Positions 1 through 21,592 of a DNA stretch of 64,000 nucleotides are shown here, in pieces. Origin of the DNA: Chloroflexota bacterium (GTDB lineage: Bacteria > Chloroflexota > Anaerolineae > Anaerolineales > Villigracilaceae); assembly GCA_016213105.1 (NCBI GenBank), contig JACRBN010000001.1, forward strand, positions 186,001 to 250,000. Reading direction: 5' to 3'. How positions within the stretch are numbered: the first letter of the stretch is position 1; every line of letters begins with the position of its first letter. Both the position numbers and the translations under genes were made by a program. A model generated the notes under the pieces. It did no database searches, was not told the origin of the DNA, and was given only the letters and a program-made list of their open reading frames with translations.

Positions 1-1637
1 CCTTCATCCACAACGAGGCAAGTGGAGATGTCGAGACCTTGGGCGGCGGGATGTACAGCCGCGGCGAGAGCGTCCCCACGCTGACCGATGTCACCTTCAA
101 CGGAAATTCGGCAGATTACGGCGGCGGGATGTATAACCAAAACAGCCACCCCTCCCTCACGCAAGTCGATTTCAACGGGAATAAAGCACTCTTTGAAGGC
201 GGCGGGATGTACAATGCCAATCTGAGCAACCCGGTCTTGATGAACGTCACCTTCGTGGAAAACTCGGCTGACAATTACGGGGGTGGCATGAGCAACTACA
301 ACGACAGCAGCCCGTCCCTGACCAACGTCTCCTTCACCGACAATACCGCTGTCAACGCAGGCGGGGGAATGTACAACAATGACGGACATCCAACCATCTC
401 ATCGGTTGGCTTCATCGGCAACTCGGCCGCGGGCGGCGGCGGTTTGTACAACTATTCCAGCCACCCGGTGCTGACCGACGTAACATTAACCACCAATACA
501 GCCACCTACGGGGGCGGGATGAACAACCGTGACAGCAACCCGACCCTGACCAACGTCACCTTCAACGGCAACACAGCCGTGGATTACGGCGGCGGGATGT
601 ACAACACGCTGGGCAGCGCTCCCACGCTGGTCAACGTCACATTCAGCGGTAACACGGCCACCAATGGCGGCGGCGGAGGCATGTACAACACTTCCAGCAG
701 CCCGACTCTGACCAACGTCACCTTCAGCGGCAATTCGGCGCAGGGCGGCGGCGGAATCTATAACTGGAGCAGCAACTCCATCATTCGTAACACGATCCTG
801 TGGGGCAATACCGCTCCCAATGGCCCGCAGATCTACAACAACTCCAGTTCTCCCACAGTCAGCGACAGCGTGATCCAAAATGGGTATACAAGCGGCACGA
901 ATATCATCACTGCTGACCCCCTGCTCGGCGCACTTGGCAACAATGGCGGCCACACCCAGACCATTCCACTCCTGACTGGCTCATCGGCATTTGATGCGGG
1001 CAATGACTCTGTCTGCCCCGATACCGATCAACGCGGCGTCGAGCGTCCACAACATATCCGTTGCGACATTGGCTCATATGAATACAATGGGGCGGTTTTT
1101 ACAGATGTGTCGTTCACCCATTGGGCCAATACCTTCATCGAACGCCTGTACCTGCAAGGCATCACGGGCGGCTGCGGCGGCGGCAACTACTGTCCCAACA
1201 ACACCGTCACCCGCGCCCAGATGGCCGTTTTCCTGCTGGTCGCCGAACATGGTACGGGCTACACTCCGCCCGACGCAACTGGCATCTTCAATGACGTTCC
1301 CGCTAGCAATGGTTTTGCCAGGTGGATCGAACAACTGGCCGCCGAAGGCATCACGGGCGGCTGTGGCGGCGGTAACTATTGCCCCAATACTCCCGTCACC
1401 CGCGAGCAGATGGCTGTCTTCCTGCTGGTCGCCGAGCATGGGACAGGCTACACGCCACCCGCTGCGACTGGCGTCTTTGCGGATGTGCCCGCTGCCTACC
1501 CCTTTGCCCCCTGGATCGAGCAACTGGCTGCCGAAGGCATCACCGGCGGCTGCGGCGGCGGCGACTTCTGCCCCAAGACCGTCGTCAACCGCGCGCAGAT
1601 GGCGGTGTTCCTGGTCACGGCTTTCAATTTGCCATAG
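1..1637 (+). CDS. Pmp-like repeat surface protein with C-terminal SLH triplet (5' end outside window)
   Basis: The reading frame is open to the left edge, so the signal peptide and start lie outside the window. The visible 545 residues begin with about ten glycine-rich repeats of roughly 25 residues built around NVTF-x-GN-[ST]A and GGGMYN, the pattern of Chlamydia-type polymorphic membrane protein repeats, which fold as a beta-helix. Next comes a segment of the choice-of-anchor Q type (ILWGNT, then GNNGGHTQT and a DQRG-x-ER stretch). Three SLH-like modules close the protein, each carrying ITGGCGGGNYCPN followed by VTRAQMAVFLL or a close variant. The role is probably non-catalytic cell-surface adhesion or S-layer-associated display, anchored by the SLH triplet. 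It is the first of three neighbouring SLH genes. Family assignment is firm; the ligand is unknown. Confidence 0.88.
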   Translation, partial: FIHNEASGDVETLGGGMYSRGESVPTLTDVTFNGNSADYGGGMYNQNSHPSLTQVDFNGNKALFEGGGMYNANLSNPVLMNVTFVENSADNYGGGMSNYNDSSPSLTNVSFTDNTAVNAGGGMYNNDGHPTISSVGFIGNSAAGGGGLYNYSSHPVLTDVTLTTNTATYGGGMNNRDSNPTLTNVTFNGNTAVDYGGGMYNTLGSAPTLVNVTFSGNTATNGGGGGMYNTSSSPTLTNVTFSGNSAQGGGGIYNWSSNSIIRNTILWGNTAPNGPQIYNNSSSPTVSDSVIQNGYTSGTNIITADPLLGALGNNGGHTQTIPLLTGSSAFDAGNDSVCPDTDQRGVERPQHIRCDIGSYEYNGAVFTDVSFTHWANTFIERLYLQGITGGCGGGNYCPNNTVTRAQMAVFLLVAEHGTGYTPPDATGIFNDVPASNGFARWIEQLAAEGITGGCGGGNYCPNTPVTREQMAVFLLVAEHGTGYTPPAATGVFADVPAAYPFAPWIEQLAAEGITGGCGGGDFCPKTVVNRAQMAVFLVTAFNLP

Positions 1638-1912: not shown

Positions 1913-4126
1913 ATGGTTACCAGCACCCCCAGAAGTTCCAGGCCGAAATTGCCCCCTCTTTTTCATCTCGCAGCCGTCCTGACCCTGCTGGCGCTGACCT
2001 TCGCATGCGTCCGCCCGGCCCAGGTCGAGTCGCTGCCGGTCATGCCGACCCTGCCGGGACAGCAGGACGAGGAGACGCCGTCACAAGGCCCCATCACATC
2101 CGACCTGTACGATACGGGCAACCCCGGCCTGCGCGAGGTGTGGGTGGATCCCGTCCACGGCAACGACGGCAACGACGGGAGCACTCCCGCCGCCGCCCTG
2201 CGCACACTAACCGCCGCCTGGGAGGGCATTCCCTTGGGCGTGACCCTGACCCAGGGCGTGCGCATCAACCTCCAGCCCGGGACGTATACCGAGGATATGA
2301 TTCCGCTATATTGGTCATCGCGCCGCGGCACGTTCAGCGCCCCGATCTGGATTCGGGGAAACGCATCTTCGCGCGCGCAGGTCATCCTCCAGGCCAGCCT
2401 GAACATCTACGACACCGACTATCTCTACCTGGAAAACCTGAGCGTCATCTTCGGCGGCGATGTGTTCCACTGCGAGCTATGCGACCACACCCTGCTGCGC
2501 AACTTGGTTCTCGATGGCGGCGCGCGGCAGGCCCAGGAGGTGGTCAAGGTCAACCAGTCGCAATATTTCTACATCGAAAACAGCGACATTCACGGAGCCT
2601 GGAACGTGAGCGTCGACCTGGTGGCTGTGCAGCATGGACACATGCTCGGCAACCGCATCCACGACGCAGGCGACTGGTGCTCCTATTTCAAGGGCGGCTC
2701 GGCCTACTTCCGCGTGGAGTCGAACACGTTCTACGATTGCGACAATGGCGGATTCTCGGCCGGGCAGGCCACAGGTTTCCAGTTCATGACCGCGCCCTGG
2801 ATCCAGTACGAAGCCTACGATATCAAAGTGGTCAACAACATCATCCACGACACCGACGGTGCCGGGCTGGGAGTCAACGGCGGCTACAACATCCTGCTGG
2901 CCTACAACACCCTGTACCGCGTGGGCAGCCAGTCGCACGTGCTGGAGGTGGTGTACGGGGGCCGCATCTGCTCGGGGGCGCCCGGCGACCCGGGCCGCGA
3001 GTTGTGCCAGCAATACCTGAACCAGGGCGGCTGGGGCACCACCGAGGTGGACAACGGCGTGAACTCCATCCACATCCCCGACCGCGGGGTGTACATCTAC
3101 AACAATATCGTCTACAACCCGACCGGCTATCAAAGCCAGTGGATGCATTTTGCCATCTACGATGCGCGCTCCAATCCCGCCTTTAGCAACGTCCCCACCG
3201 CCGCCACGGATACCAATCTACGCATCCGCGGCAACGTGATCTGGAACGGGAGCGCCTCCATGCCGCTGGGCGTGGAAGACAACGCCGACGCCTGCATCGC
3301 CAGCGACGTCACCTGCAACGAGGCGCAACTGCTCGCCGACAATGCCATCAACACCGTCCAACCCGCCTTCGTGAACGCCGCTGGCGGCGATTTCCACCCC
3401 GACGGGGACTGGGGCAACTCAGTGACGCTCTACGACATCCCCGATTACGTCTGGGAGATCGGCAGCGTCCCTAGCGGCACCATCAGCAACACCGTCCCGA
3501 CCGATTTCGAGGGCATCTCCCGCTCGACGGATAATGCGCCTGGAGCCTACAGCAATGCATCCAACCTGCCGCACATCTTCCAGGATGTGCCTGCCACCCA
3601 TTGGGCCTGGCAATACATCGAGCGCCTGTACAACCACGGCGTGACTGGCGGCTGCCACACCGATCCGCTCAGGTACTGCCCGTCGGCCAGCGTCACCCGC
3701 GCGCAGATGGCCGTCTTCCTGCTCAAAGGTCGGCACGGCATGGACTATACCCCGCCCAACGCCACGGGCGGGGTCTTCCTCGACATCCCCGCCACCCATT
3801 GGGCCGCCGCCTGGGTCGAGCAACTATCCACTGAGAATATCACGGGCGGTTGTGGGAATGGCAACTATTGCCCCGATACGACCATCTCCCGCGACCAGAT
3901 GGCGGTGCTCCTCTTACGCGCAAAACACGGCAACGCCTTCACCCCCCTGCCCGCCACTGGCATCTTCGCCGATGTCCCCATCGAATACTGGGCCGCAGAC
4001 TGGATCGAGCAGCTCGCCGCCGAAGGAATCACCGGCGGCTGCGGCGGGGGCAACTACTGCCCCAACCTGGTCGTCCGCCGCGACCAGATGGCCGTCTTCC
4101 TGGTGGTTGCCTTCGGCCTGCCGTAA
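1913..4126 (+). CDS. Exported right-handed beta-helix protein with SLH triplet
   Basis: A 737-residue protein. The N-terminus has a basic stretch, a hydrophobic segment (about residues 16-31) and Cys32 in a weak lipobox context (LTFAC), so it is exported and possibly a lipoprotein. Residues about 75-500 look like a parallel right-handed beta-helix of the DUF1565/pectate-lyase-like kind: it opens with WVDPVHGNDGNDG and has recurring N-x-I-x-D/G turns. Residues about 545-737 form three SLH modules with TGGC...YCP...QMAVFLL, closely related to those of both neighbouring genes. The start is supported by GACGAGG seven bases upstream. Such folds often bind or cleave polysaccharide, but no catalytic residues were identified, so the substrate is open. 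Confidence 0.85.
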   Translation: MVTSTPRSSRPKLPPLFHLAAVLTLLALTFACVRPAQVESLPVMPTLPGQQDEETPSQGPITSDLYDTGNPGLREVWVDPVHGNDGNDGSTPAAALRTLTAAWEGIPLGVTLTQGVRINLQPGTYTEDMIPLYWSSRRGTFSAPIWIRGNASSRAQVILQASLNIYDTDYLYLENLSVIFGGDVFHCELCDHTLLRNLVLDGGARQAQEVVKVNQSQYFYIENSDIHGAWNVSVDLVAVQHGHMLGNRIHDAGDWCSYFKGGSAYFRVESNTFYDCDNGGFSAGQATGFQFMTAPWIQYEAYDIKVVNNIIHDTDGAGLGVNGGYNILLAYNTLYRVGSQSHVLEVVYGGRICSGAPGDPGRELCQQYLNQGGWGTTEVDNGVNSIHIPDRGVYIYNNIVYNPTGYQSQWMHFAIYDARSNPAFSNVPTAATDTNLRIRGNVIWNGSASMPLGVEDNADACIASDVTCNEAQLLADNAINTVQPAFVNAAGGDFHPDGDWGNSVTLYDIPDYVWEIGSVPSGTISNTVPTDFEGISRSTDNAPGAYSNASNLPHIFQDVPATHWAWQYIERLYNHGVTGGCHTDPLRYCPSASVTRAQMAVFLLKGRHGMDYTPPNATGGVFLDIPATHWAAAWVEQLSTENITGGCGNGNYCPDTTISRDQMAVLLLRAKHGNAFTPLPATGIFADVPIEYWAADWIEQLAAEGITGGCGGGNYCPNLVVRRDQMAVFLVVAFGLP

Positions 4127-4191
4127 CCTGCCACCTCTCGAAACAGCTTCCTCATGGGGAGGCCGCTATTTTTCTTAATGATTTACAATCT

Positions 4192-4251
4192 TGTAAGCGT
4201 ACAAAAGTGCGATGTTCAATCTCTGTGTTCTATGTTATTCATTGAACATCG
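4192..4251 (+). promoter_or_regulatory. Two inverted repeats in the leader of the metalloprotease gene
   Basis: TTGTA-AGCG-TACAA (4192-4205) is followed by an 11-bp stem, CGATGTTCAAT (4210-4220) with ATTGAACATCG (4241-4251), separated by 20 nt. They end 14 bases before the ribosome-binding site TGGAGG. The spacing would suit either a dimeric operator or an mRNA hairpin. No T run follows, so this is not a terminator. Function is inferred. Confidence 0.45.
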
Positions 4252-4273
4252 TTCAACCCCCAAATGGAGGCAT

Positions 4274-6256
4274 ATGAGAACCAAAACCCTGCTCCACGGC
4301 CTGTTCACAGTTGTGTTCATCGCCGCATTGTCCATTGGCAGCCTGCAGCCGGTGGCGGCCCAGGCTGGGCAGCCACAGTCCATCACAGGCTGGCTGTCGA
4401 TCCTGCGGGGCGACGGACCGCAAGGTTCGCTCCCCCAGACCATTTACCACCTGACCCAAGAGGACGGGACCTCGACCCGCCTGCTTCTGGATGAAGACCT
4501 GCTCGCCGCCCAGGCGGGCCTGCTGGCCCTGGACCGTCAGCATGTCACCGTTCAAGGAGAAGCAACCCGCCTGACGGTCGACGGGACCGAAGCCGGCTTC
4601 CAGGTGGCTTCCATCGCTTTGGCTGCGGATGAGGCGTCCAGCGGCAGTCCCGCGGTGGTTAGCGGCGCCAAGCCCTTCATTTCGATCCTGTGTAAATTTG
4701 CCGATTATGCCCAGGAGCCGAAAACCCTGTCCTACTTCCAGGGCATGTACGGCTCAACCTACCCCGGCCTGAACCATTACTGGCGGGAGGTCTCGTACAA
4801 TAACATCAACATCAACGGCAGCAATGCGGTCGGCTGGTACATACTGCCCCAGCCGCGCTCCTACTATGTCTATGGCGGCCAGCTCGACTTCGACCGCGCC
4901 GCCGACGATTGCACCGGCATGGCCGACCCGCACGTCAATTTTGCGGGTTTCACCGGCGTCAACCTGATGTTCAATTATGACCTGGACGGCTACGCCTGGG
5001 GCGGCGGTCATTACATGACGCTGGACGGCATCTCCAAGGTTTGGCCGATGACCTGGGAACCGCCGTGGGGCTACGAATCCATCGGCGTCATCTCGCACGA
5101 AATGGGACACGCCTTCGGGCTGCCGCATTCCTCGGGCAATTACGGCGAGACTTACGACAATCGCTGGGACGTGATGAGCGACCTGTGGAGCGATTGCGGC
5201 CGCTCCACGCACGCCACCTACGGCTGCCTGGGTCAGCACACCATCATCTATCACAAGGACCTGCTCGGCTGGGTGCCCGCTTCCCTGAAGTACACCTTGA
5301 ATTACGCCGCCGTCCCCGCGCCCGGTGACGCGCAGGCCGGGGTCAGCCCGGGCGCCTACATCATGGCCAAACTGCCCATCACGGGCAGCAGCACATACTA
5401 CACGGTGGAGGCGCGCTTCCGCCCCGGGTATGACGTGAAACTGCCCAACCCGGGCATCATCATTCACCAGGTCGTCCCATCCCGCTATGACAGCCCCGCG
5501 CACGTCATCGATATCGACAACAACGGCGACACGGGCGATGCGGGCGCCATCTGGAGCGTGGGCGAAACCTTCAACGACGCAACCAACCACATCAGCGTGC
5601 AGGTGCTTGCGCTGACATCCAACGGCTACTCGGTTAAGATTCAAAACGGGTCGGCGTCGGCCACCATTGAGATCGACAGCAACGCGCAGATCCTCACCTT
5701 TGGGGATGTGCCCCTGGGCTACTGGGCCTCCGGATGGATCGAGAAACTCTACAACAACGGGGTGACGGGCGGCTGTTCGTCCAACCCGTTGATGTTCTGC
5801 CCCACGAAGGGCATCAACCGCGCCGAAATGGCTGTCTTCCTGCTGCGCTCCAAGTACGGCTCCAGCTATTCGCCGCCGGCAGTGGGAGGCAGCACCGGCT
5901 TCAACGATGTGCCCACCACCCATTGGGCCGCCGCCTGGATCAAACAACTGGCCGCCGAAAATATCACAGGCGGATGCGGCAACGGCAACTACTGTCCCGC
6001 CACCATCGTGGACCGCGCCTCGATGGCCGTGATCCTGCTGCGCGCCGAACACGGCCCGGGGTACCTCCCGCCGGCTGTGGGAGCCAGCACCGGCTTCACC
6101 GACGTGCCCACCACGCATTGGGCCGCCGCCTGGATCAAGCAACTGGTGGCCGAAGGCATTGCCAGCGGCTGCACCGCCAGCACCTATTGTCCAGCATCCG
6201 TCGTCAACCGCGCTCAGATGTCCGTCTTCCTGGTGGAGACCTTCAATCTGCCATAG
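4274..6256 (+). CDS. Secreted M6-like zinc metalloprotease with SLH triplet
   Basis: A 660-residue protein starting at an ATG preceded by TGGAGG; a longer in-frame start at 4154 lacks a ribosome-binding site and would bury the signal peptide. Residues 1 to about 30 are a Sec signal ending in VAAQA. The catalytic domain (about 140-400) carries HEMGHAFGLPH at residues 275-285, the HExxHxxGxxH zinc site, then a downstream DVMSD turn as in M6 immune-inhibitor-A-like proteases. Three SLH modules occupy about 475-660 and match those of the two upstream genes. It should act outside the cell, fixed to the wall. Substrates are unknown. A bidirectional terminator follows directly. Confidence 0.88.
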   Translation: MRTKTLLHGLFTVVFIAALSIGSLQPVAAQAGQPQSITGWLSILRGDGPQGSLPQTIYHLTQEDGTSTRLLLDEDLLAAQAGLLALDRQHVTVQGEATRLTVDGTEAGFQVASIALAADEASSGSPAVVSGAKPFISILCKFADYAQEPKTLSYFQGMYGSTYPGLNHYWREVSYNNININGSNAVGWYILPQPRSYYVYGGQLDFDRAADDCTGMADPHVNFAGFTGVNLMFNYDLDGYAWGGGHYMTLDGISKVWPMTWEPPWGYESIGVISHEMGHAFGLPHSSGNYGETYDNRWDVMSDLWSDCGRSTHATYGCLGQHTIIYHKDLLGWVPASLKYTLNYAAVPAPGDAQAGVSPGAYIMAKLPITGSSTYYTVEARFRPGYDVKLPNPGIIIHQVVPSRYDSPAHVIDIDNNGDTGDAGAIWSVGETFNDATNHISVQVLALTSNGYSVKIQNGSASATIEIDSNAQILTFGDVPLGYWASGWIEKLYNNGVTGGCSSNPLMFCPTKGINRAEMAVFLLRSKYGSSYSPPAVGGSTGFNDVPTTHWAAAWIKQLAAENITGGCGNGNYCPATIVDRASMAVILLRAEHGPGYLPPAVGASTGFTDVPTTHWAAAWIKQLVAEGIASGCTASTYCPASVVNRAQMSVFLVETFNLP

Positions 6257-6313: not shown

Positions 6314-7435
6314 CTATTTGGAAGAGTCGATAAATTGCCTGATGACGCCGACCACATATGCCGCATCCTCCAGGCTCAGGTGCGGTCCCATTGGCAGGCT
6401 GAGTTCGCAGGCAGCCAGATGCTCCGCCAGCGGGAAGCTTCCCTGCGGAATTTGCATATCGGCATAGGCCCCCGACAGGTGCGGCGGAATCGGATAATGG
6501 ATCAGGGTGTCCACGCCCTGGCCGCTCAAGTATTTCTGAAGCTCATCTCGCCTGGGATGCAAAACAGGGAAGATATGCCAGATGGGCGAGCACCATTCAG
6601 GCGCGAAGGGCAGGGTCAGGTCGGGCAGGCCCGCGAGATGCTCCAGGTAATAGGCGGCAATCTTCGCGCGGCGCTGATTCCACTCCTCCAGGTGCGGGAG
6701 TTTGGCGCGCAGGAAGGCCGCCTGCAGCTCATCCAGCCGCGAGTTGTAGCCCTTGAACTCGTTGTAATACTTGACCTGTGAGCCATAATTACGCAACATG
6801 CGGATTTTTTCCGCCAGGCCATCGTCATCGGTCAGGACGGCGCCCGCATCGCCCAGCGCGCCCAGGTTCTTGCCGGGATAGAAGCTCACACCGGCAGCAT
6901 GTCCGAGCGCGCCCGTCTGGCGGCCCTTGTAGCGGGTGCCTTGTGCCTGGGCCGCATCCTCGATCACCTTAAGGTTGTGACGCCCAGCCAATTCCATGAG
7001 CGGGTCAATGTCGGCAGGCTGGCCGTAGAGGTGAACGGGCAGGATGGCCCTCGTCTGCGGGGTGATGGCCGCCTCGACGCGCAGCGGGTTAAGGTTATAG
7101 GTGTGGGGATCTGGTTCAACGGGAACAGGCCTGGCTCCGGCATAGGAAACGGCCAGCCAGGTGGCGATATAGGTGTTGGAGGGCACGATGACTTCATCGC
7201 CCCCGCCAATCCCATAGCCGCGCAGGATCAGGTGCAGGGCCTCCAATCCATTGCCAACCCCCAGGCAGTGACGCGCGCCGCAATAGGCGGCGTATTCCTG
7301 CTCGAAGGCTTTCACCTCCCCGCCCAGGATGTACCAGCCCGAGTCCATCACACGCTGGTAGGCGGCGTCGAGTTCCGCCTTGAGTTCCAAGTACGGGGAC
7401 TTCATGTCGAGAAAGGGCACCTTGCGTTGGGTCAT
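6314..7435 (-). CDS. DegT/DnrJ/EryC1-family sugar aminotransferase (FdtB-like)
   Basis: A 373-residue PLP enzyme of the DegT/DnrJ/EryC1/StrS family at normal length. The lysine expected to hold PLP is in [14 protein letters not shown]; the N-terminal [12 protein letters not shown] and the central [15 protein letters not shown] are family hallmarks. It overlaps by 4 nt the gene for an FdtA/FdtC-like fusion, which strongly suggests the FdtB step: transamination of dTDP-3-keto-6-deoxyhexose to the 3-amino sugar. It is the last gene of the glycan operon and ends at the shared terminator. The exact stereoisomer (Fuc3N or Qui3N) cannot be told from sequence reading alone. Confidence 0.9.
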
Positions 7436-13875: not shown

Positions 13876-15225
13876 TCAGCCTTCCGAAACGGGAGGACGT
13901 ACCTCTTCCACGGCTTCACGGGTAGCGCGCAGGAAGGCATACCCATACTTGCGGTCAGGCTCCAGGTAGGCGCATTCGCCCCACTCGTTCCAGGCGTTGA
14001 TGAAGACGAAGGGACGGTCGAGTTCCTGGTTGGTGCGGGCTTCACGCAGCACGTCCATCAGCCATTCCTTGTACAGCTCAGGGCTGGCGCCGTGGTAGAT
14101 CATGGCTGTGTTGTTGCGGCGCGGCGTGTTGTCCCACATGGGCATGACCGCGCGGTAGAGCTTCTTCGCCTGGAAGTTGAAATATCTTTTGTTCCTGACC
14201 AGGTCGGCATAATCAAGGATCAGGCCACGGAAGTCGTCGCGCACGAACTGCATTTCGTTGGTGATGTGCTTGCAGTAACGGAAGACCGTGCCCGGGTGGA
14301 ATTCGCTCTGGGCGTCGAAGCCGAGGGCCAGCAGGTCGCCGTCGAAGGTGTTTTCCTTCACCGCGATGACGTAGGGATCGCCGAGTCCCTCCTGCTTGCA
14401 ATACGCGCGCCAGTAGGCCAGCACCCTGGGCGGGTCGGGGACGAAGGACGGGCGGTAGATGATCAATACGGGGCGGCCATCCACGCGGATATAGCGCTTG
14501 TCCTGCATGTAGGGTTTGACGCTCTCGATGAAAGCCTGGTAGCTTTCGACCGATTCGTTCTGGTACATGATGACTTCGCCGCTGGAACCGTCGAAGCGGC
14601 GCGTCCAGGATTCGTTGGCCCAGCACAGGCAGAAGGGATAATCGATCTGCGGGCTGTTCAGGAACAGGTCGAGCGGCCTGTCGAGCAGGCGGCGGCCGTC
14701 GAACCAGTAGAAGTAATAGGCGAAACCGTAGATGCCGTGACTCTTCGCCAGTTCGGCCTGACGGGCGATGTTTTCCGCCAGGCGCAGGTCGTATTGTCCC
14801 AGCTCACCGGCCAGGCGCGGCTGGTAGTGGCCGACATACTGCGGCACCGCGCGGGACACGTTATGCCATTCCGTGACGCCCTTGCCCCACCACTCGTCGT
14901 TTTCGGGCGTGGGATGGTATTGCGGCAGGTAATAGGCCAGGATCATCGGGTCATCGGGCTGGCGCTCGTAGGAGTCGGGCGCCAGGTCGACGAATTCATC
15001 CGAGACTTCGGGCACGGACAGGACCTGCTGAACGTATTGCTGGAGCCGCTCGGGGTGCAGGTGGCCGGGCGTCGGCGCGGAAACAGAAATGGGAGCAGGC
15101 GCAGGGGTGACGGGGGCCGCAGGCGGGAACAGTCGATGCCGTATGGCGGCCAGGCGCCGCTTGAGTCCCTCGGGGACGGGCATCCGCCAAAAGAACTGGA
15201 CCAGGCGCGAGTACAGTTCCCTCAT
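13876..15225 (-). CDS. WbsX-like glycan protein (GH99-like domain)
   Basis: A 449-residue protein whose residues about 88-435 match the WbsX / glycoside hydrolase 99-like family: AYYLPQYHPTPENDEWWG at the start of the domain, GFAYYFYWFDGRRLLDRPL, then CWANESWTRRFDG and the C-terminal FINAWNEWGECAYLEPD. The N-terminal 85 residues are Pro/Ala-rich and probably disordered. WbsX proteins are found in O-antigen and capsule clusters; their reaction has not been settled, and they could be endo-glycosidases or transferases. The gene overlaps the CsaB fusion gene by 4 nt (ATGA), so translation is coupled. Confidence 0.88.
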   Translation of the reverse strand: MRELYSRLVQFFWRMPVPEGLKRRLAAIRHRLFPPAAPVTPAPAPISVSAPTPGHLHPERLQQYVQQVLSVPEVSDEFVDLAPDSYERQPDDPMILAYYLPQYHPTPENDEWWGKGVTEWHNVSRAVPQYVGHYQPRLAGELGQYDLRLAENIARQAELAKSHGIYGFAYYFYWFDGRRLLDRPLDLFLNSPQIDYPFCLCWANESWTRRFDGSSGEVIMYQNESVESYQAFIESVKPYMQDKRYIRVDGRPVLIIYRPSFVPDPPRVLAYWRAYCKQEGLGDPYVIAVKENTFDGDLLALGFDAQSEFHPGTVFRYCKHITNEMQFVRDDFRGLILDYADLVRNKRYFNFQAKKLYRAVMPMWDNTPRRNNTAMIYHGASPELYKEWLMDVLREARTNQELDRPFVFINAWNEWGECAYLEPDRKYGYAFLRATREAVEEVRPPVSEG

Positions 15226-18071
15226 TTCTTCACCCCCGCCATTTTGAGCATTTCGACGGTCTTGGCCCGCCAGGAATTCTCGTTGGCTTCCCTATCCAAA
15301 GTTTTAAGGTAGTCGGGATCGTCCCGAAGCTCGACTGCGCGTTTGAGTTGCGCCATAAATTCCTCGTTGGTTTCTGCGATCAAACAGGATTTGTATTTTC
15401 GGCATTCGCGCAGGTCGGTGGAGACGATCGGTTTGCGCGCCGCCATGTATTCGAAGATCTTGACGGGGGAGACCGCCTCGGTCAACTCGGATTTCCTGAA
15501 CGGCAGGATGGCGATGTCGTAGTACACCGCATAGGTATTCAAATCGAAATAGGATTTGCTGCCCAGGAAATGAACGTGCGGGTGCTGCTTCAGGCCGCTC
15601 TTCGGCAGTTCGTCGTCGTGCTCGTGGCCGATCAGCACCAGCTCATAACTGCCTTCGTCGGCGATCATGCGCAGAAGCTCGTAGTCGGTCCATTTGGCCA
15701 GCGCGCCGTGATAGCCCACGATCACCCGCCCCGTCAGGGCGGGTTTGAGGTCATCGGGTGGAGTCCCCCTGGCGATGCGCCAGTGCTCCACATCCACGCC
15801 GTTGGTGCTCAGCAGGAAATTGCGCGAACGGTGCCGCCCGACTTCCTCGTAGAGCTGGTCGGCGGTGGTTACCACGATGACGCGCTCATCCTTGAGGATA
15901 GCTTCGTGACGGCGATGCACCAGTTCGGGGACGTTGCCCGTGATCTCGGGGCTGATCTTGTCGATGTACTCGTACACCACCTTGAAGCCGCGCCGCAGGA
16001 AATCCTGCACGTGCTCGGCGGTGGTCACCAGGTCGATGGACTGGATGCGCAGGATGACGGTCTGGTCGACGCGCTTTTCGAGCGCGGCCAGCACGCGGTT
16101 GGTGACCGTGTTGTCGGTGGCCTTGAAGACCAGCAGGTTCTTCTTCACTTCCTGGTAGACGAAGATGTCCTTGTCCACGGTGGGATGCCCGCCATAGATG
16201 GCCAGCCCGCCCATTTTGGCGACTTGGAGCGAGATGTGCTGGAAACGCTGGAACAGGAGCGTATTCCAGCCCATCGGCACATGGAAGATATCGACGAAGC
16301 CGCGGTGCTGCGCGATCCTGCGCTCCAGTTCGAGCAGGTCGCTTTCGTAGCGGTCCTTCTGCACGGTCTTCTTGACCGGGTACGAAAGGCGAATCCACAG
16401 AATGGACAGGCCGCGCAGGAAGGCTTTGAAGATGCCGTGCCTGCGGATGGCTTCGCGGATGCGCCCCAAAATTTCGCGCGGCTTGCGATACAGCCATTTG
16501 ATCGTTCGTTCGAGGAAGCCCCCGGGCGGGAGCAGGAGCAGGCGCAGTTTACGCAGCAGCAGCGCGACCTTGTACACGCGGCTGCTGGTGATCTCATCCT
16601 TCAACTGGCGTTCGTAGGCCACCCGCCAGTTCAGGTAATCGATGGCGTGCTGCTGCTCGGCGGCCTTCACTTCCATGCCGCGGATGGTTTCCTTTTTGTC
16701 CTCGACCTCCGCGACCAAAGCCCACTTCTCCGCGTTCAGAACCTCGACGTGGGCCTGCTTCTCTTCGACGCGCGCGATCAAGCCCGCGATCTGGAGATTC
16801 AGGTCGTCGACGTGGTGATCCCGTTCGGCCAGGCTTTGCACCTGCCGAATCGACAGATCCCGCAGCATCTCGATGGTTTGTGGCGTTTCCTTATGCGCGA
16901 TCCTGCCTTCCAGCAAATCCAGGGCCAGGAGGGTGTTTCCGCGCGCCGCCTCGCGCACTTGCGCGCCGCGTTCGAGCAGGCGCGCGCGGATGGATTCGCG
17001 CCCCCCCCAGACCGCCCCCAGCGTGGAGGCCAACTGGTCGACATCCATGCCCTGCAGGTCGAGCGCGTACGCGGACATGTCCAGCGAGCGCATGAAGTTG
17101 TGCACTTTGGGATCGTAGGCCAGCGCCAGGGCGGGGACGCCCGCGCTGGCGGCAAAGATCAGCGAGTGCAGGCGCATCCCGACCAGCGCGTGACAGCGCG
17201 AGATCAATCCAGCCGTCACCTCGGGTGTGTAGGTGGCGGGGATGGCGTGGACGCGTTCCTTTGCCTCCATCATCCCAGCCAGTTCGAGCGCCACGATGTG
17301 ATCGTTCTCCAACTCGTGTTCGCCGACCTGGAAGGGGATGAATACCACCTTGGCATTTTCCTGTGCGAGGAAGCGGTCGAGCGCCGAGGCCAGTTCCTGC
17401 TTCCAGGCCGTGGATTTTTCGCCCTCGGTCCAGTTGCGCAGGCAGACGCCCAGGACGGGCTGCTCGCCCAGGTCGACGCCCGCCGCCTCGAAGATGGCAT
17501 CCGTCCCCTCGGTGCGCGGAAGCAGGCCCAGGGCCGGGTCGGGTTTGACCGTCGCTTTTTGAATGGGAAGGCCCAAAGAGACCAGCAACGCCAGGGACTC
17601 GGGATCGCGCACGGTGGCCGCATCTGCCAGCTCGAAGGACAGGCGCGTCCAGCGCTTGCCATCCTCGCTCAACAGCGGACCGACGCCCACCGCGTAGATC
17701 ATGAACGGTTTTTGGTAGAGGTGGGCCAGCAGGGCGAAACTGCTGTAAAAGGAAATGCCCCAATGATGCTGGGTGAGCTGGGCGTTCGCGGGCATGCCCC
17801 AGTAATCCTGGAAGAGGCCGCCGCCACCGAGCAGGATCAGGTCGCAGTCGCGCGCCGCATCCAACAGGCCCTGCATGTCCTTCCAATGCACCGAACGCAC
17901 CCCATGCCCGCTTTCGGTGCGGCCGGGGTCGGAGGAAACTACGATAAATTCAAGGTCGCTGCGCTGTTCCCGAAAACCCGCCAGGATTGCGCTTAAGATC
18001 GCTTCGTCGCCGATGTTTTCAAAGCCGTAATATCCCGCAATCAGGATGGTTTTTGCCCGTTGTTCGTTCAC
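15222..18071 (-). CDS. CsaB polysaccharide pyruvyl transferase fused to a glycosyltransferase
   Basis: A 949-residue fusion from the GTG at 18071 (GAGG ten bases ahead; an in-frame ATG at 18134 has no ribosome-binding site). Residues about 7-390 are a CsaB-type pyruvyl transferase, opening with ILIAGYYGFENIGDEAIL and containing the glycine loop LILLGGGGLFQDYWG. A coiled-coil linker (about 405-525) follows. Residues about 590-949 look like a GT-B transferase: GYHGALAKWTDYELL, then YDIAILPF and VSPVKIFEYMAARKPIVSTD, where the glutamate of the EX7E-like region sits. CsaB ketal-pyruvylates secondary wall polymer, the ligand of SLH domains, and three SLH genes lie nearby. It leads the glycan operon. 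The fusion itself is the oddity: the two halves are usually separate. Confidence 0.85.
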   Translation of the reverse strand: MNEQRAKTILIAGYYGFENIGDEAILSAILAGFREQRSDLEFIVVSSDPGRTESGHGVRSVHWKDMQGLLDAARDCDLILLGGGGLFQDYWGMPANAQLTQHHWGISFYSSFALLAHLYQKPFMIYAVGVGPLLSEDGKRWTRLSFELADAATVRDPESLALLVSLGLPIQKATVKPDPALGLLPRTEGTDAIFEAAGVDLGEQPVLGVCLRNWTEGEKSTAWKQELASALDRFLAQENAKVVFIPFQVGEHELENDHIVALELAGMMEAKERVHAIPATYTPEVTAGLISRCHALVGMRLHSLIFAASAGVPALALAYDPKVHNFMRSLDMSAYALDLQGMDVDQLASTLGAVWGGRESIRARLLERGAQVREAARGNTLLALDLLEGRIAHKETPQTIEMLRDLSIRQVQSLAERDHHVDDLNLQIAGLIARVEEKQAHVEVLNAEKWALVAEVEDKKETIRGMEVKAAEQQHAIDYLNWRVAYERQLKDEITSSRVYKVALLLRKLRLLLLPPGGFLERTIKWLYRKPREILGRIREAIRRHGIFKAFLRGLSILWIRLSYPVKKTVQKDRYESDLLELERRIAQHRGFVDIFHVPMGWNTLLFQRFQHISLQVAKMGGLAIYGGHPTVDKDIFVYQEVKKNLLVFKATDNTVTNRVLAALEKRVDQTVILRIQSIDLVTTAEHVQDFLRRGFKVVYEYIDKISPEITGNVPELVHRRHEAILKDERVIVVTTADQLYEEVGRHRSRNFLLSTNGVDVEHWRIARGTPPDDLKPALTGRVIVGYHGALAKWTDYELLRMIADEGSYELVLIGHEHDDELPKSGLKQHPHVHFLGSKSYFDLNTYAVYYDIAILPFRKSELTEAVSPVKIFEYMAARKPIVSTDLRECRKYKSCLIAETNEEFMAQLKRAVELRDDPDYLKTLDREANENSWRAKTVEMLKMAGVKK

Positions 18072-18189
18072 TTGGTTGTGGCCTCTCGTGGAAATATGCC
18101 CGATAATATCATAGAAATCCGACGAAGGCTTCATTTATGCAAAGCCCAGACGCGCGGCATTTGCCGCCCCAGGCGGGACGGGGGATGGG

Positions 18190-18195
18190 TATAAT
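18190..18195 (+). promoter_or_regulatory. Candidate -10 box of the TIR-STAND gene
   Basis: TATAAT lies 46 bases before the chosen start in the 170-nt gap between divergent genes. No clear -35 hexamer is visible at 16-18 nt spacing, so it may be a weak or activator-dependent promoter. Confidence 0.4.
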
Positions 18196-18241
18196 CAGGC
18201 CGTACCCACGCAGCAGTCAACGCATGATTTTGAGGGAACCC

Positions 18242-21200
18242 ATGACCGACGGACATTGTTTCATCAGTTATTCAGCGGCAGACGGACTTGAATTTGCCAC
18301 CAGACTTGTGGACGAACTGCAAGGCAGGCATCCATTCATCAAAGTCTGGTTCGATAAACGCGAGATGGACGCGTCGATTGTGGATTGGGATGACCAGCTT
18401 GCCAATGCAATTAAGGCTTGTAAGTGTCTTGTATTTGTCATGACACCAGATAGTATAGCCAAGGGATCAACCTGCAAGGAAGAATGGACCTGGGCTTTGA
18501 AATACAAGAAGCCCGTCATTTGCCTACTAAAAGATAAAAAGGCGGAAGTTCCATTTCGGTTATTCAATCGTCAGTACATTGATATTTCCACCAATTTCGA
18601 TTTGGGGATTGCCCAATTAAGAAGTGCGATTAAACGTTTGGATGAACCCGAAGGAATACTCGAAGAACTTGACCGTCGTTTGTCGCAAGCGAAGAGGGAT
18701 TTACAACGCACCCCGCATGAGGAAGAAAAACCGCGTATTCAAGCAGAAATTGAAGATTTAAATAAGCAAATAGAGGCTCAACAGAAGTTCGTGGACAACC
18801 CGAAAGCCGCGCAGGAACAGACGCAGAAAAACATCGAAGCAGGCTTGGAACGCGAACGGCAACCCGAAAAACCAAGTTCCAAGTCCCAATCTACCAAGTT
18901 CATCAATCCCCCGCCTGGAATCGCGCCAACCTATTTCCAAGATCGCACCGTCGAAACGGAGCAGGTATTCAAGTTCCTGCAAGATGACTCGCAGCGGATG
19001 ATGACCATCGTCGGGCGCGGAGGGGTGGGTAAAACGGCGATGGTGTGCAGGCTGTTGAAAGGTCTGGAGGGAGGCGAACTTCCTGATGGGCTGGGCAACA
19101 TGAAGGTGGAGGGAATCGTCTATCTCAGCGAGAGCGGCAGTCACCGCGTCAATTTCGCCAATCTGTTTTATGACCTGTGCAAACTCCTGACCGCCGATGC
19201 CGCGAACGCGCTCGACGCCGTCTATAAAAATCCGCAGGCGAGCACGGCGTCAAAGATGAGTGCGCTGTTGGACAGGTTCACGACAGGGAAGGTGGTTCTG
19301 CTGTTGGATAACGTCGAACCGCTCATCAGCGTCGAGACCTTCGACATCTCCGACGCAGAACTGGATGAATGCATGCGCGCCTTGCTGCATGGAGCACACA
19401 GCGCGTTGAAGGTCATCCTGACCACGCGCGTCGCCCCGCGCGGACTGAACCTGTGCGAGCCTGGCAGGCAGCGCGTGTTGACTCTCGACAGCGGCTTGGA
19501 GCAGAAATACGCCGTCGAAATGCTGCGCGAAATGGACGTGGACGGGAAGTTGGGGCTGAAATCGGGGACGGATGGAGTGCTTGGGCGCGCCTGCGAGCGG
19601 ACGCTGGGGTTCCCGCGCGCGCTGGAAGCGCTGTTTGCGATTCTGGCTTCTGACCGATATACGACGCTCGATGAACTGCTTGTCATGCCCACGCCCGTCA
19701 ACGTGGTGGAGGCGTTGGTGGGCGAAGCCTTCAACCGTTTGGACACGAACGCGCAAAAGGTGATGCAGGCGCTGGCGGTCTATAACCGACCCGTCACCCC
19801 CGCCGCCGTGGATTACCTGCTTGCGCCGCACATCCCCGCGATTGACAGTGCGCCGATTTTGCAACGGCTGGCAAATATGGATTTTGCGCTCAAAGAGAAC
19901 GGACGGTTTTATTTACATCCTGTGGATCGGGAGTTTGCTTTTGGGTTGGTTACAGAGAACAGTGATTCGCAGCCCGCACAACTACTCTCTACTCATCTAA
20001 TCTCTAATCATCTCCCATTCACCCAACACGATCTAACCAGCCGCGCCGCAGATTATTTTAGACAAGCCCGCAAGCCGCGCGCTGAATGGAAAGAACTAAA
20101 CGATCTAAGTGCTAATTTATCCGAATTCGACTTGCGGTGCGACGCCAATGATTACAATACCGCCGCGACAGTATTGAAAGACATTGATTATGATTATTTG
20201 CTCCTGTGGGGACATGCACAATTACTTATTAATATGCACCAAAAAATAAAAGAATTAATTAACGACAAATCTCTGGTTATGTGGAACCTAAATGTTCTAG
20301 GGCTAACATACACCAGAATTGGAAAAGTAAAAGAAGCCATAAATTTTTATCAGCAAGGATTAAATATGGCACAAGAAGACAAAGATCGCAGATGGGAAAG
20401 TGTATTTCTTGGCAATATTGGGAGCGCCCATTATTCATTAAGCGACATAAAAAAGTCCATCTCGTTTTTTGAGCAAAGACTGGGTATTACTGAAAATTTT
20501 AGTGATCGACGCCTTCAGGCATTTGATCTCGAAAATCTCGGCAGTGCTTATGTTGCGCTTGGCGAGCCGCAAAAGGCTATAAAACTTCATGAGCAAGCAT
20601 TGTCCATTAATTACGAATTCAAAAACCGACGAGGAGAAGGAAATACGCTTGGCAACTTAGGAAACGCCTATTATTTTTTGGGCGAAATAAACAAAGCGAT
20701 TAAATGCCAGGAACAAGCCTTGGTTATTCGTAGAGAAATCCATGACAGGCGTGGAGAAGGAAATGCTCTAAGCAATTTAGGAAGCAGTTATGCTGTTCTT
20801 GGAAATATACAAAAATCTCTATCTCTTTGTGAACTAAGCTTGGAAATTGCTCGAGAAATTGGTGATAAGCGTGGTGAGGGAATGGCTTTAAATAACCTCG
20901 CGGATAAATATGCAAAAATGGGGAAGAAAATAGAATCGCTTGAGTGTTACGAAAAAGGGTTAGAATGCGCACAAGAAACAGGAAATAAATATGGCGAGTC
21001 TATTAGTGAAAATGGGATTGCTAATTTTTTAATAGAAGAAGGTAAGTGCCAGCAATCAATTCAGCACTCTCATAAGTCGAATCAACTTGGCGTAGCGATG
21101 AGTAATCCTAAAGTATGCAGTAAAAGTTTTATGTCTTTGGCACAGGTTTATCTTTTCCAAAATGATTTGGTCAATGCCTGCGCCACCATCGAAGCCGCGC

Positions 21201-21592
21201 TGCAATATGATGTGCCAGAAAACAATCACAATGCCAGCGCCCTGCACGGAATCATCGCCTTGCGGCAGGGGGATGAGGTCGCGGCACGGGGAGCCTTTGT
21301 CCGCGCGATCGGGCAGGCGGATGAGATTCTGTCCAAGACGGCGGAGTATTATGATGCGCTGGATGCGAAGGGAATCGCCCTTTCAGGGCTAGTGGTAAGT
21401 GGTAAGTGGGAAGTGGATAGTGAAAAGCAGAAGGCGCTGGATGAGGCGGTGGAGGTGTTTAGGAAGGCAAGGAAGATCGCGCCACATGCGGGGGTGGTCA
21501 AGTCCGTGCTGAGGTTGTTTGATGAGTTGGTCAAGTGTGATGAGGAGGGAATCTTGAAGGATGTGAGGATCGCGGTTGAAGGAAAAGAATGA
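18242..21592 (+). CDS. TIR-STAND ATPase-TPR protein (NLR-like, probable immune sensor)
   Basis: A 1116-residue protein; the start follows TGAGGG and gives MTDGHCFISYSAADG, so an upstream in-frame ATG at 18137 is less likely. Residues 1 to about 135 are a TIR domain; the helix with STCKEEWTWAL holds a glutamate in the place of the NADase catalytic residue. A charged coiled coil (about 140-200) joins it to a STAND/NB-ARC ATPase with Walker A GRGGVGKT (about 259-266) and Walker B VVLLLDNVEP (about 353). The C-terminus (about 670-1010) has at least seven TPRs of the N-x-x-GNLGxAYxxLGxxxKAI type. Known relatives sense infection and consume NAD. The TPR part is visibly richer in A+T than the ATPase part, a sign of mosaic origin. 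It is a single-gene unit. Confidence 0.88.
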   Translation: MTDGHCFISYSAADGLEFATRLVDELQGRHPFIKVWFDKREMDASIVDWDDQLANAIKACKCLVFVMTPDSIAKGSTCKEEWTWALKYKKPVICLLKDKKAEVPFRLFNRQYIDISTNFDLGIAQLRSAIKRLDEPEGILEELDRRLSQAKRDLQRTPHEEEKPRIQAEIEDLNKQIEAQQKFVDNPKAAQEQTQKNIEAGLERERQPEKPSSKSQSTKFINPPPGIAPTYFQDRTVETEQVFKFLQDDSQRMMTIVGRGGVGKTAMVCRLLKGLEGGELPDGLGNMKVEGIVYLSESGSHRVNFANLFYDLCKLLTADAANALDAVYKNPQASTASKMSALLDRFTTGKVVLLLDNVEPLISVETFDISDAELDECMRALLHGAHSALKVILTTRVAPRGLNLCEPGRQRVLTLDSGLEQKYAVEMLREMDVDGKLGLKSGTDGVLGRACERTLGFPRALEALFAILASDRYTTLDELLVMPTPVNVVEALVGEAFNRLDTNAQKVMQALAVYNRPVTPAAVDYLLAPHIPAIDSAPILQRLANMDFALKENGRFYLHPVDREFAFGLVTENSDSQPAQLLSTHLISNHLPFTQHDLTSRAADYFRQARKPRAEWKELNDLSANLSEFDLRCDANDYNTAATVLKDIDYDYLLLWGHAQLLINMHQKIKELINDKSLVMWNLNVLGLTYTRIGKVKEAINFYQQGLNMAQEDKDRRWESVFLGNIGSAHYSLSDIKKSISFFEQRLGITENFSDRRLQAFDLENLGSAYVALGEPQKAIKLHEQALSINYEFKNRRGEGNTLGNLGNAYYFLGEINKAIKCQEQALVIRREIHDRRGEGNALSNLGSSYAVLGNIQKSLSLCELSLEIAREIGDKRGEGMALNNLADKYAKMGKKIESLECYEKGLECAQETGNKYGESISENGIANFLIEEGKCQQSIQHSHKSNQLGVAMSNPKVCSKSFMSLAQVYLFQNDLVNACATIEAALQYDVPENNHNASALHGIIALRQGDEVAARGAFVRAIGQADEILSKTAEYYDALDAKGIALSGLVVSGKWEVDSEKQKALDEAVEVFRKARKIAPHAGVVKSVLRLFDELVKCDEEGILKDVRIAVEGKE
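21391..21424. repeat. Degenerate AAGTGG repeat inside the TIR-STAND gene
   Basis: Imperfect tandem copies of the hexamer-like word AGTGGTA/AGTGGGA encode LVVSGKWEVDSEK in frame. A similar low-complexity tract (TCTCTAATCATCTC words) is at about 19984-20020. Comparable word-repeat tracts occur in the FemAB gene, between the tRNA genes and in the T-box leader. Confidence 0.5.

What the first reader, a model, noticed from the sequence alone, without database searches (positions are those of the whole stretch)
15222..18071. CsaB pyruvyl transferase fused to a glycosyltransferase
Seen: CsaB domain, coiled coil and a GT-B-like domain in one chain. Established: CsaB pyruvylates wall polymer, and SLH domains bind pyruvylated sugar. 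Inference: one protein makes and caps the polymer that anchors the neighbouring SLH proteins; the coiled coil may set the reach.
Basis: partly seen in the sequence, partly recalled or inferred. Interest (0 to 1): 0.62.

Follow-up and report, generated by a model that had tools for sequence, protein, structure and literature searches.

The report
Pyruvate-capping enzyme fused to sugar-polymer builder
A Chloroflexota bacterium carries one long protein that joins a pyruvate-adding enzyme, a coiled stalk and a sugar transferase, and it probably finishes the wall sugar chains onto which the cell's many surface proteins clip.

Summary
The fusion is real: one frame (window 15222-18134, minus; likely start 18071) encodes CsaB, a coil, a basic stretch and a GT-B domain, and two relatives carry it. 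CsaB passes TIGR03609 and keeps the PEP-site residues of P. alvei CsaB. It belongs to one clade of 23 mostly giant CsaB proteins (100/96). Their loci hold SLH-like genes in 15 of 23 (10 with Pfam support) and a Wzm/Wzt pair in 11 of 23, against 2 and 1 of 22 control loci. In four outside relatives the coil-GT-WbsX part follows Wzm/Wzt, with a methyltransferase in CsaB's place; one Paenibacillus cluster shares six further modules. I read this as a swapped cap enzyme: CsaB ends the chain, the coil may gauge length, the pyruvyl end is the SLH ligand. Not shown: activity, end-capping, length control. Against: no exporter beside the window operon, 5 of 6 tested exporters lack the cap-reading domain, and G619 lacks coil and SLH hits. 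New variant of a known kind.

The parts
15222..18134 (-). Fusion gene csaB-coil-GT, 970 aa from ATG 18134; likely true start 18071 (949 aa)
17004..18050 (-). CsaB pyruvyltransferase domain (residues 29-377); Y36, F38, R176, R233, R321, H323, K343 correspond to P. alvei CsaB Y14, F16, R148, R207, R306, H308, K328
   Evidence: TIGR03609 219.1 bits; residues; model
16584..16880 (-). Predicted coiled-coil helices (residues 419-517)
   Evidence: model helices 419-460 and 470-517; heptad run 77, 5 of 300 shuffles; 42 residues (6 heptads) shorter in the congener
16308..16580 (-). Basic helical stretch (residues 519-609): 23 K/R against 8 D/E; helix 540-566 amphipathic; follows a short S-rich Y/W-K/R motif also seen in L004-L007
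15225..16307 (-). GT-B glycosyltransferase domain (residues 610-970)
   Evidence: PF13692; Z up to 26.1 to GT-B glycosyltransferases
13876..15225 (-). WbsX-type protein (PF14307); overlaps the fusion by 4 bases; same neighbour, or fused, in L003, L114 and L004-L007
12422..13867 (-). MBOAT O-acyltransferase, DltB-like below that model's cut-off
   Evidence: 72% identical in L003
11339..12409 (-). AlgX-like SGNH protein, possible acyltransferase partner
   Evidence: 62% identical in L003
9591..11240 (-). GtrII-type integral-membrane glycosyltransferase
   Evidence: 24% identical to the gene in L006
8369..9328 (-). GT2, PgfS/ArnC-like below those models' cut-offs
   Evidence: 58% identical in L006
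7432..8421 (-). Hexapeptide transferase fused to FdtA-like sugar ketoisomerase
   Evidence: separate genes in L006, 60% and 40% identical
6314..7435 (-). DegT sugar aminotransferase
   Evidence: 52% identical in L006
4154..6256 (+). SLH protein with M6-like peptidase region (below that model's cut-off); an arginine is kept in all three SLH repeats
1913..4126 (+). SLH protein with beta-helix region; an arginine is kept in all three SLH repeats
3..1637 (+). Third SLH-like protein (start may be cut by the window edge)
   Evidence: 250 bits to the SLH query; repeats seen

Best explanation
The protein is a membrane-associated cytoplasmic polymer-assembly enzyme (inferred). Its C-terminal GT-B domain, with WbsX and other GTs, extends a lipid-linked wall polysaccharide near the membrane (inferred). 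Its N-terminal CsaB domain, held away by a coiled coil, transfers pyruvate from PEP to the outer (non-reducing) sugar once the chain is long enough to reach it, which ends elongation (inferred by analogy with coiled-coil terminators). The capped chain is exported, in many relatives probably by a neighbouring Wzm/Wzt ABC transporter, is decorated outside (GtrII plus GT2, MBOAT plus AlgX-like) and displayed; the pyruvylated end is the ligand of the SLH proteins encoded next door and throughout the genome (inferred). Shown here by sequence and model: the fusion, the domain folds, conserved PEP-site residues, one clade, and gene linkage with SLH-like proteins and Wzm/Wzt.
For: Anatomy. PEP-site and loop residues (R148, R207, R306, H308, K328 equivalents) are kept in 23 of 23 clade rows; R207 is also kept in 32 of 32 Bacillota CsaB rows, but in 10 of 30 stand-alone Chloroflexota rows (18 another residue, 2 gapped; the 30 include one duplicate and some fragments). 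Clade of 23, support 100/96. Linkage within the flank held (up to 10 kb a side): SLH-like 15 of 23 against 2 of 22; Wzm+Wzt 11 of 23 against 1 of 22; both 9 of 23 against 0 of 22. Domain swap: L004, L005, L006 and L007 have methyltransferase-coil-GT, with WbsX fused or adjacent, directly behind Wzm-Wzt; L006 shares GT 45%, WbsX 52%, GtrII 24%, GT2 58%, hexapeptide 60%, FdtA 40%, DegT 52%. G737 has CsaB plus coil alone, separate GT genes and Wzm/Wzt, with SLH genes beside them. Papers: terminators sit at the far end of a coiled coil (PMC11231755, Discussion part 1); WbbZ with PEP gave shorter products in vitro, read there as premature termination (PMC10629545, passages); the SLH domains of P. 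alvei SpaA bound pyruvyl-ManNAc but not an internal disaccharide by ITC (PMC6081394, passages).
Against: No Wzm/Wzt within 10 kb in the window genome or its congener; three Wzm/Wzt pairs lie elsewhere in the window genome, and which of them, if any, serves this polymer is unknown. Five of six clade-locus Wzts tested lack the cap-reading Wzt_C domain (the other clade Wzts were not tested). G619 has the fusion and WbsX but no heptad run, no exporter in the flank held and no SLH hit in the genome. Four of 21 clade proteins scanned show no GT domain in the same chain. P. [quoted passage not shown] alvei polymer is pyruvylated in every repeat although its SLH domains read the end; a co-crystal with the internal disaccharide was also obtained (PMC6081394). 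WbbZ caps chains without setting their length (PMC10629545). 15 of 16 control genomes searched have no SLH hit, so the neighbourhood contrast partly repeats genome co-occurrence.
Confidence: 0.5

Rival explanations
1. Repeat-unit pyruvylation by channelling: the GT domain adds the acceptor sugar to the lipid-linked precursor and the fused CsaB pyruvylates it at once, in every repeat, as in P. alvei; the coil only oligomerises or tethers the enzyme.
For: P. alvei CsaB acts on the lipid-linked disaccharide made by TagA (PMC6030368, passages); Bacillota have CsaB-WecG/TagA fusions (L186-L188) and GT4-CsaB fusions (L184, L185), which fit channelling.
Against: Clade members carry different GT types behind CsaB (GT4, GT2 or both), not one acceptor-making GT; CsaB sits where other coil proteins of the same GT family carry a methyltransferase; in G757 and G737 CsaB plus coil is separate from the GTs.
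Confidence: 0.25
2. Pyruvylated capsule or exopolysaccharide unrelated to SLH anchoring; proximity of SLH genes is incidental in SLH-rich genomes.
For: G619 carries the fusion with no SLH hit; 14.6% of the window genome already lies within 11.5 kb of an SLH hit; the own genome's second PF04230 gene also lies near an SLH gene; 13 of 16 clade genomes had no SLH hit at the strict E<=1e-8, some of them with SLH-like genes beside the fusion.
Against: 15 of 23 loci near SLH-like genes (10 of 23 with Pfam support) is above that background, if the background holds in the other genomes; genomes with SLH at E<=1e-3: 5 of 6 clade against 1 of 16 other; the second PF04230 protein differs at the CsaB acceptor-site residues; the window SLH repeats keep an arginine that I take, by the TRAE-type motif, to be the pyruvate-binding SLH-Arg43 of PMC6081394.
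Confidence: 0.2
3. Assembly or annotation artefact joining two genes.
For: None found.
Against: Same fusion in two further genomes; one frame, no stop.
Confidence: 0.01

Closest known systems
CsaB ketal pyruvyltransferase (TIGR03609; P. alvei, B. anthracis)
   Same: Domain, PEP-site residues, SLH-rich genome
   Different: P. alvei CsaB is a stand-alone protein of 396 aa (PMC10435577, passages); the fused clade is separate in the tree and mostly adds coil and GT modules
Coiled-coil chain terminators WbdD (E. coli O9a), WbbB (K. pneumoniae O12), ORF6 (K. pneumoniae O7)
   Same: Terminal-group enzyme at the far end of a coiled coil, GT modules at the other end in O12 and O7 (PMC11231755); link to ABC export in 11 of 23 clade loci
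   Different: Cap enzyme is a pyruvyltransferase; 5 of 6 neighbouring Wzts tested lack Wzt_C; length control untested
WbbZ (K. pneumoniae O1b)
   Same: Pyruvate cap on a chain exported by an ABC transporter
   Different: Encoded as a separate protein, not needed for chain length, and in another pyruvyltransferase clade than CsaB (PMC10629545 passages; PMC11231755 passages)
CsaB-WecG/TagA and GT4-CsaB fusions of Bacillota (L184-L188)
   Same: CsaB fused to a GT
   Different: Different GT family, or GT in front of CsaB; I saw no coil in the printed sequences but did not compute one
Paenibacillus sp. NAIST15-1 cluster (L006)
   Same: GT, WbsX, GtrII, GT2, hexapeptide, FdtA, DegT shared
   Different: Methyltransferase-bearing N-terminus instead of CsaB; Wzm/Wzt adjacent; no MBOAT or AlgX match in the stretch held

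Membership tests
CsaB (TIGR03609) | Score over curated cut-off | tested here: met
   219.1 against 213.1 bits
CsaB (TIGR03609) | P. alvei PEP-site and loop residues R148, R207, H308, K328 | tested here: met
   R176, R233, H323, K343 (residue roles from PMC10435577, passages)
CsaB (TIGR03609) | Ketal pyruvyl transfer to ManNAc on a lipid carrier | not testable with these tools
   needs enzyme assay
GT4-type GT-B glycosyltransferase | Pfam GT group 1 domain and GT-B fold | tested here: met
   Z 26.1, rmsd 3.9, 335 aligned to 7mi0
GT4-type GT-B glycosyltransferase | Donor sugar and linkage | not testable with these tools
   none
Coiled-coil chain terminator (WbdD/WbbB/O7 ORF6 type) | Cap enzyme at far end of an extended coiled coil, GT at the other | tested here: met
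   anatomy by prediction only; that CsaB acts as the cap enzyme is inferred
Coiled-coil chain terminator (WbdD/WbbB/O7 ORF6 type) | Membrane-associated amphipathic helix after the coil | tested here: inconclusive
   basic amphipathic helix 540-566, 9 of 500 shuffles as high; four other helices tested were not above shuffles
Coiled-coil chain terminator (WbdD/WbbB/O7 ORF6 type) | Encoded with an ABC exporter | tested here: inconclusive
   not adjacent in the window genome; 11 of 23 clade loci
Coiled-coil chain terminator (WbdD/WbbB/O7 ORF6 type) | Wzt carries a cap-binding C-terminal domain | tested here: inconclusive
   1 of 6 clade-locus Wzts tested has Wzt_C; in the window genome two Wzts have it (C17, C24), the C23 one does not, and the partner is unknown. 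Not filed as a member of that checkpoint system
Coiled-coil chain terminator (WbdD/WbbB/O7 ORF6 type) | Controls chain length | not testable with these tools
   needs mutants
SLH / pyruvylated wall polymer anchoring | SLH proteins with the motif arginine in the same genome | tested here: met
   117 SLH matches, 150 of 196 candidates scored; motif in the window proteins
SLH / pyruvylated wall polymer anchoring | Pyruvylated polymer in the wall that SLH proteins bind | not testable with these tools
   needs wall chemistry and binding assays

The most novel reading that the evidence does not exclude
In this Chloroflexota order the SLH anchor is itself the chain-terminating cap: a coil-ruled pyruvyltransferase ends an ABC-exported wall polymer, so one enzyme sets both the length of the tether and its binding site, joining two systems known separately from Bacillota and Gram-negative O antigens.
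Probability: 0.38. Interest if true: 0.82.

Novelty: new variant of a known kind. Interest (0 to 1): 0.64.

Why it matters
A review says that in B. anthracis only the terminal repeat is pyruvylated and that the proposed pathway lacks evidence for the acceptor of CsaB (PMC6801904, passages; PMC6081394, notes some uncertainty about the extent). SLH domains of P. alvei appear specific for the terminal pyruvyl sugar (PMC6081394, passages). A coiled-coil terminator made with CsaB would give a mechanism for end-only pyruvylation and would predict tether length from coil length. It would also extend the ruler mechanism from O antigens to an SLH-anchored envelope.

Tried and rejected
Assembly join: rejected. 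WbdD membership of the L004 N-terminus: a phmmer search of PDB sequences gave only two weak hits, labelled ToxA protein and a cypemycin methyltransferase; an AlphaFold model of that end from 3 sequences was poor (mean pLDDT 41) and was not searched, so a kinase half rests only on a D-x4-N...D-x-E pattern that I read in the alignment (its meaning is recalled) and is not claimed. P0001 had no PDB sequence hit at E<=0.1. In the fold comparison the CsaB part aligned with UDP-GlcNAc 2-epimerases and GT-B enzymes at Z up to 25.1; no pyruvyltransferase structure is among the 50 entries shown, so the CsaB assignment rests on sequence. The C4 pyruvyltransferase as sole source of the SLH ligand: weakened by residues H, Q and N at the Y14, F16 and R207 sites, not excluded. 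PF04230 proteins joined to membrane proteins (L063, L064, L065, L067; flippase domain by Pfam in three of four): the three that entered the tree form another clade. Pseudomonadota: 0 of 249 genomes over the TIGR03609 cut-off, 39 of 249 with a weaker match. A coil in every member: rejected; of 18 linkers tested, in windows that I chose after, 14 had a heptad run matched by at most 15 of 300 shuffles, while G001 (44 of 300), G050 (199), G008 and G619 (300 each, no run) did not; 5 of 23 were not tested. Pfam-level SLH in every SLH-like neighbour: of eight proteins scanned, three passed the cut-off (G717, G529, G461), G535 lay just below, and those of G595, G504 (one of its two), G748 and G164 (one of its two) gave no SLH match. 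Of the papers listed, I opened only those cited.

Full report
Observation. The minus-strand frame ending at 15222 is open without interruption to an ATG at 18134 (970 aa). NCBIfam gives CsaB TIGR03609 at 219.1 bits (cut-off 213.1, residues 30-358) and a weak TuaH match over 718-964 (73.1 bits, cut-off 550); Pfam gives PF04230 (135.4 bits) and PF13692 (41.9 bits). An AlphaFold model from 24 aligned sequences has mean pLDDT 86 and pTM 0.51, so the domains are reliable but their mutual placement is not: CsaB 29-377, helices 379-408, 419-460, 470-517, 519-534, 540-566, 568-609, GT-B fold 610-970. VIA-align puts the C-terminal part on GT-B glycosyltransferases (7mi0, Z 26.1, rmsd 3.9, 335 aligned); the CsaB part aligns with UDP-GlcNAc 2-epimerases at Z up to 25.1, and no pyruvyltransferase structure is among the 50 entries shown.

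The fusion is not a join artefact. The congener genome G001 has a 908-aa protein 70% identical over 949 columns; its contig has the length and the gene of JACPVF010000005.1, a 'Chloroflexi bacterium' MAG by its title, which is my ground for the phylum. G619, another genus of the same family, has an 882-aa protein 49% identical over 940 columns. Each is followed by WbsX. Apart from the N-terminus the G000 and G001 proteins differ mainly by gaps in the coil that sum to 42 residues, six heptads; one in seven lengths would be a multiple of seven by chance.

Catalytic site. The residues that mutagenesis of P. alvei CsaB marked (PMC10435577, abstract and passages) map to Y36, F38, R176, R233, R321, H323 and K343. 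The R148, R207, R306, H308 and K328 equivalents are R, R, R, H, K in 23 of 23 fused-clade rows. Among 32 Bacillota rows R207 is kept in 32, and H308 and K328 in 25 with 7 gapped. Among 30 stand-alone Chloroflexota rows (one duplicate, some fragments) R207 is R in 10, another residue in 18, gapped in 2. The acceptor-site positions are looser in the clade: Y at Y14 in 17 of 23, F at F16 in 12 of 23. The genome's only other PF04230 hit (contig C4) has H, Q and N at the Y14, F16 and R207 sites and scores 150.3 bits, below the TIGR03609 cut-off.

Distribution. In the phylum sample 51 of 400 genomes match TIGR03609, 2 over the cut-off; in the order sample 107 of 400, 4 over the cut-off. Of the 22 places that score 156 bits or more (a line drawn after seeing the list; the next, 155.1, is a 395-aa frame), 19 lie in frames of 763 to 2270 aa; the others are 391 (G628), 490 (G757) and 495 aa (G737). 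Twenty-one of the 22, plus G026 and G157 (outside the order), form one clade of 23 in an IQ-TREE tree of 82 rows (100/96, 100% of 200 bootstrap trees), apart from Bacillota CsaBs (69/85), from CsaB-flippase fusions and from stand-alone Chloroflexota proteins; G628 lies outside on a long branch. Of 21 clade proteins scanned with Pfam, 17 show GT4, GT2 or both in the same chain (G564 only below a cut-off), and 4 (G157, G749, G757, G737) show none; G001 and G642 were not scanned. Of six long ones fetched I scanned five: three CsaB-WecG/TagA, two GT4-CsaB. In Pseudomonadota 0 of 249 pass.

Neighbourhoods. Within the flank held (up to 10 kb a side, often less because contigs end), SLH-like genes occur in 15 of 23 clade loci against 2 of 22 loci of other PF04230 proteins (Fisher 1.5e-4), a Wzm plus Wzt pair in 11 of 23 against 1 of 22 (1.7e-3), both in 9 of 23 against 0 of 22 (1.5e-3). 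With clade SLH counted only where I saw Pfam-level support, it is 10 of 23 against 2 of 22 (Fisher 0.017). Relatives are not independent: the 22 clade genomes fall into 16 genera, with SLH-like neighbours in 11 and exporters in 8. Of 16 control genomes searched, 15 have no SLH hit (G304 and G353 were not searched), so this contrast overlaps with genome co-occurrence: at E<=1e-3, 5 of 6 clade genomes against 1 of 16 others; at E<=1e-8, 8 of 22 against 1 of 36. alone, at that strict line, found 3 of 16 clade and 0 of 20 other genomes; some clade genomes without a hit there do have SLH-like genes beside the fusion. In the window genome 14.6% of the sequence lies within 11.5 kb of an SLH hit. In the congener the end of the operon is followed by four SLH genes on the other strand.

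Domain swap. The outside relatives of the coil-GT part that one search found are in Atlantibacter (L004), Undibacterium (L005) and two Paenibacillus (L006, L007); that search reaches close relatives only. In all four it lies directly behind Wzm-Wzt, is followed by or fused to WbsX, and has a methyltransferase-bearing N-terminus instead of CsaB. L006 shares GT, WbsX, GtrII, GT2, hexapeptide, FdtA and DegT modules with the window operon at 24-60% identity. So similar polymer machinery carries a different enzyme at the far end of the coil. After the coil the four and many clade members share a short S-rich W/Y-K/R motif, followed in the window protein by a basic stretch (23 K/R, 8 D/E) with one strongly amphipathic helix (9 of 500 shuffles as high; four other helices not remarkable).

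Mechanism. The passages I read state that coiled-coil terminators place the cap enzyme at the far end of the coil, that the coil is an established ruler of chain length in E. coli O9 and K. pneumoniae O12, and that in O3, O5 and O12 a domain on the transporter reads the cap (PMC11231755, passages and Discussion part 1). WbbZ shows that pyruvate can cap chains exported by an ABC transporter, though without setting their length (PMC10629545, passages). SLH domains of P. alvei SpaA bound pyruvyl-ManNAc and showed no binding to an internal disaccharide by ITC, although a co-crystal with it formed (PMC6081394, passages). Put together: CsaB is most likely the cap enzyme, the coil a candidate ruler, and the cap a candidate SLH ligand. 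Each of these steps is inference.

Against. The window operon and that of G001 have no exporter within 10 kb; the genome has Wzm/Wzt pairs on contigs C17, C23 and C24, the C23 Wzm being 52% identical to the Wzm beside the G008 fusion. Only 1 of 6 clade-locus Wzts tested has Wzt_C; in the window genome the C17 and C24 Wzts have it and the C23 one does not. The G619 protein has no heptad run and its genome no SLH hit. P. alvei CsaB acts on a lipid-linked disaccharide (PMC6030368, passages) and that polymer is pyruvylated in every repeat (PMC6081394), so every-repeat pyruvylation remains open here.

Novelty. Searches of the held library for CsaB with pyruvyl transferase, glycosyltransferase and fusion (0 papers), pyruvyltransferase with glycosyltransferase, bifunctional, coiled-coil and ABC transporter (2 papers, both read in passages), secondary cell wall with Wzm and SLH (0), CsaB with Chloroflex (16, of which the 10 listed look unrelated by title) and pyruvyl with coiled-coil, chain length, terminat and glycosyltransferase (4, two of them read in passages, two not opened) showed me no description of a CsaB-coil-GT protein. 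The library lacks most subscription journals. I rate it a new variant of a known kind.

Noticed in passing
window 18137-21592 (+): Divergent 1151-aa protein with TIR, AAA and TPR domains, directly upstream of the fusion; architecture resembles STAND-type signalling or defence proteins (recalled).
   Followed up: partly
window 1913-6256 and genome contig C28 from about 145.9 to 192.2 kb: A long run of SLH genes next to the operon; most repeats that I printed carry a paired-cysteine pattern (GC...CP), possibly a disulfide-bearing SLH subtype.
   Followed up: partly
L063, L064, L065, L067: Other Chloroflexota join a PF04230 domain to what looks like a membrane protein, a flippase domain by Pfam in three of the four.
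   Followed up: partly
L120, L121: One G586 contig carries two fused CsaB giants (1319 and 2267 aa), each behind its own Wzm/Wzt pair.
   Followed up: no
L112, L113, L116, L126: Proteins near the fused genes with peptidase (S8, M4) or LamG domains end in SLH-like triple repeats below the Pfam SLH cut-off.
   Followed up: partly
L111 14303-17839: The linker of the G717 fusion is interrupted by a run of N in the assembly, flanked by a repeated stretch.
   Followed up: no
G628 contig C11 1995-2957: A stand-alone 391-aa CsaB scoring 204 bits to TIGR03609 that falls outside the fused clade; its genome has no SLH hit.
   Followed up: no
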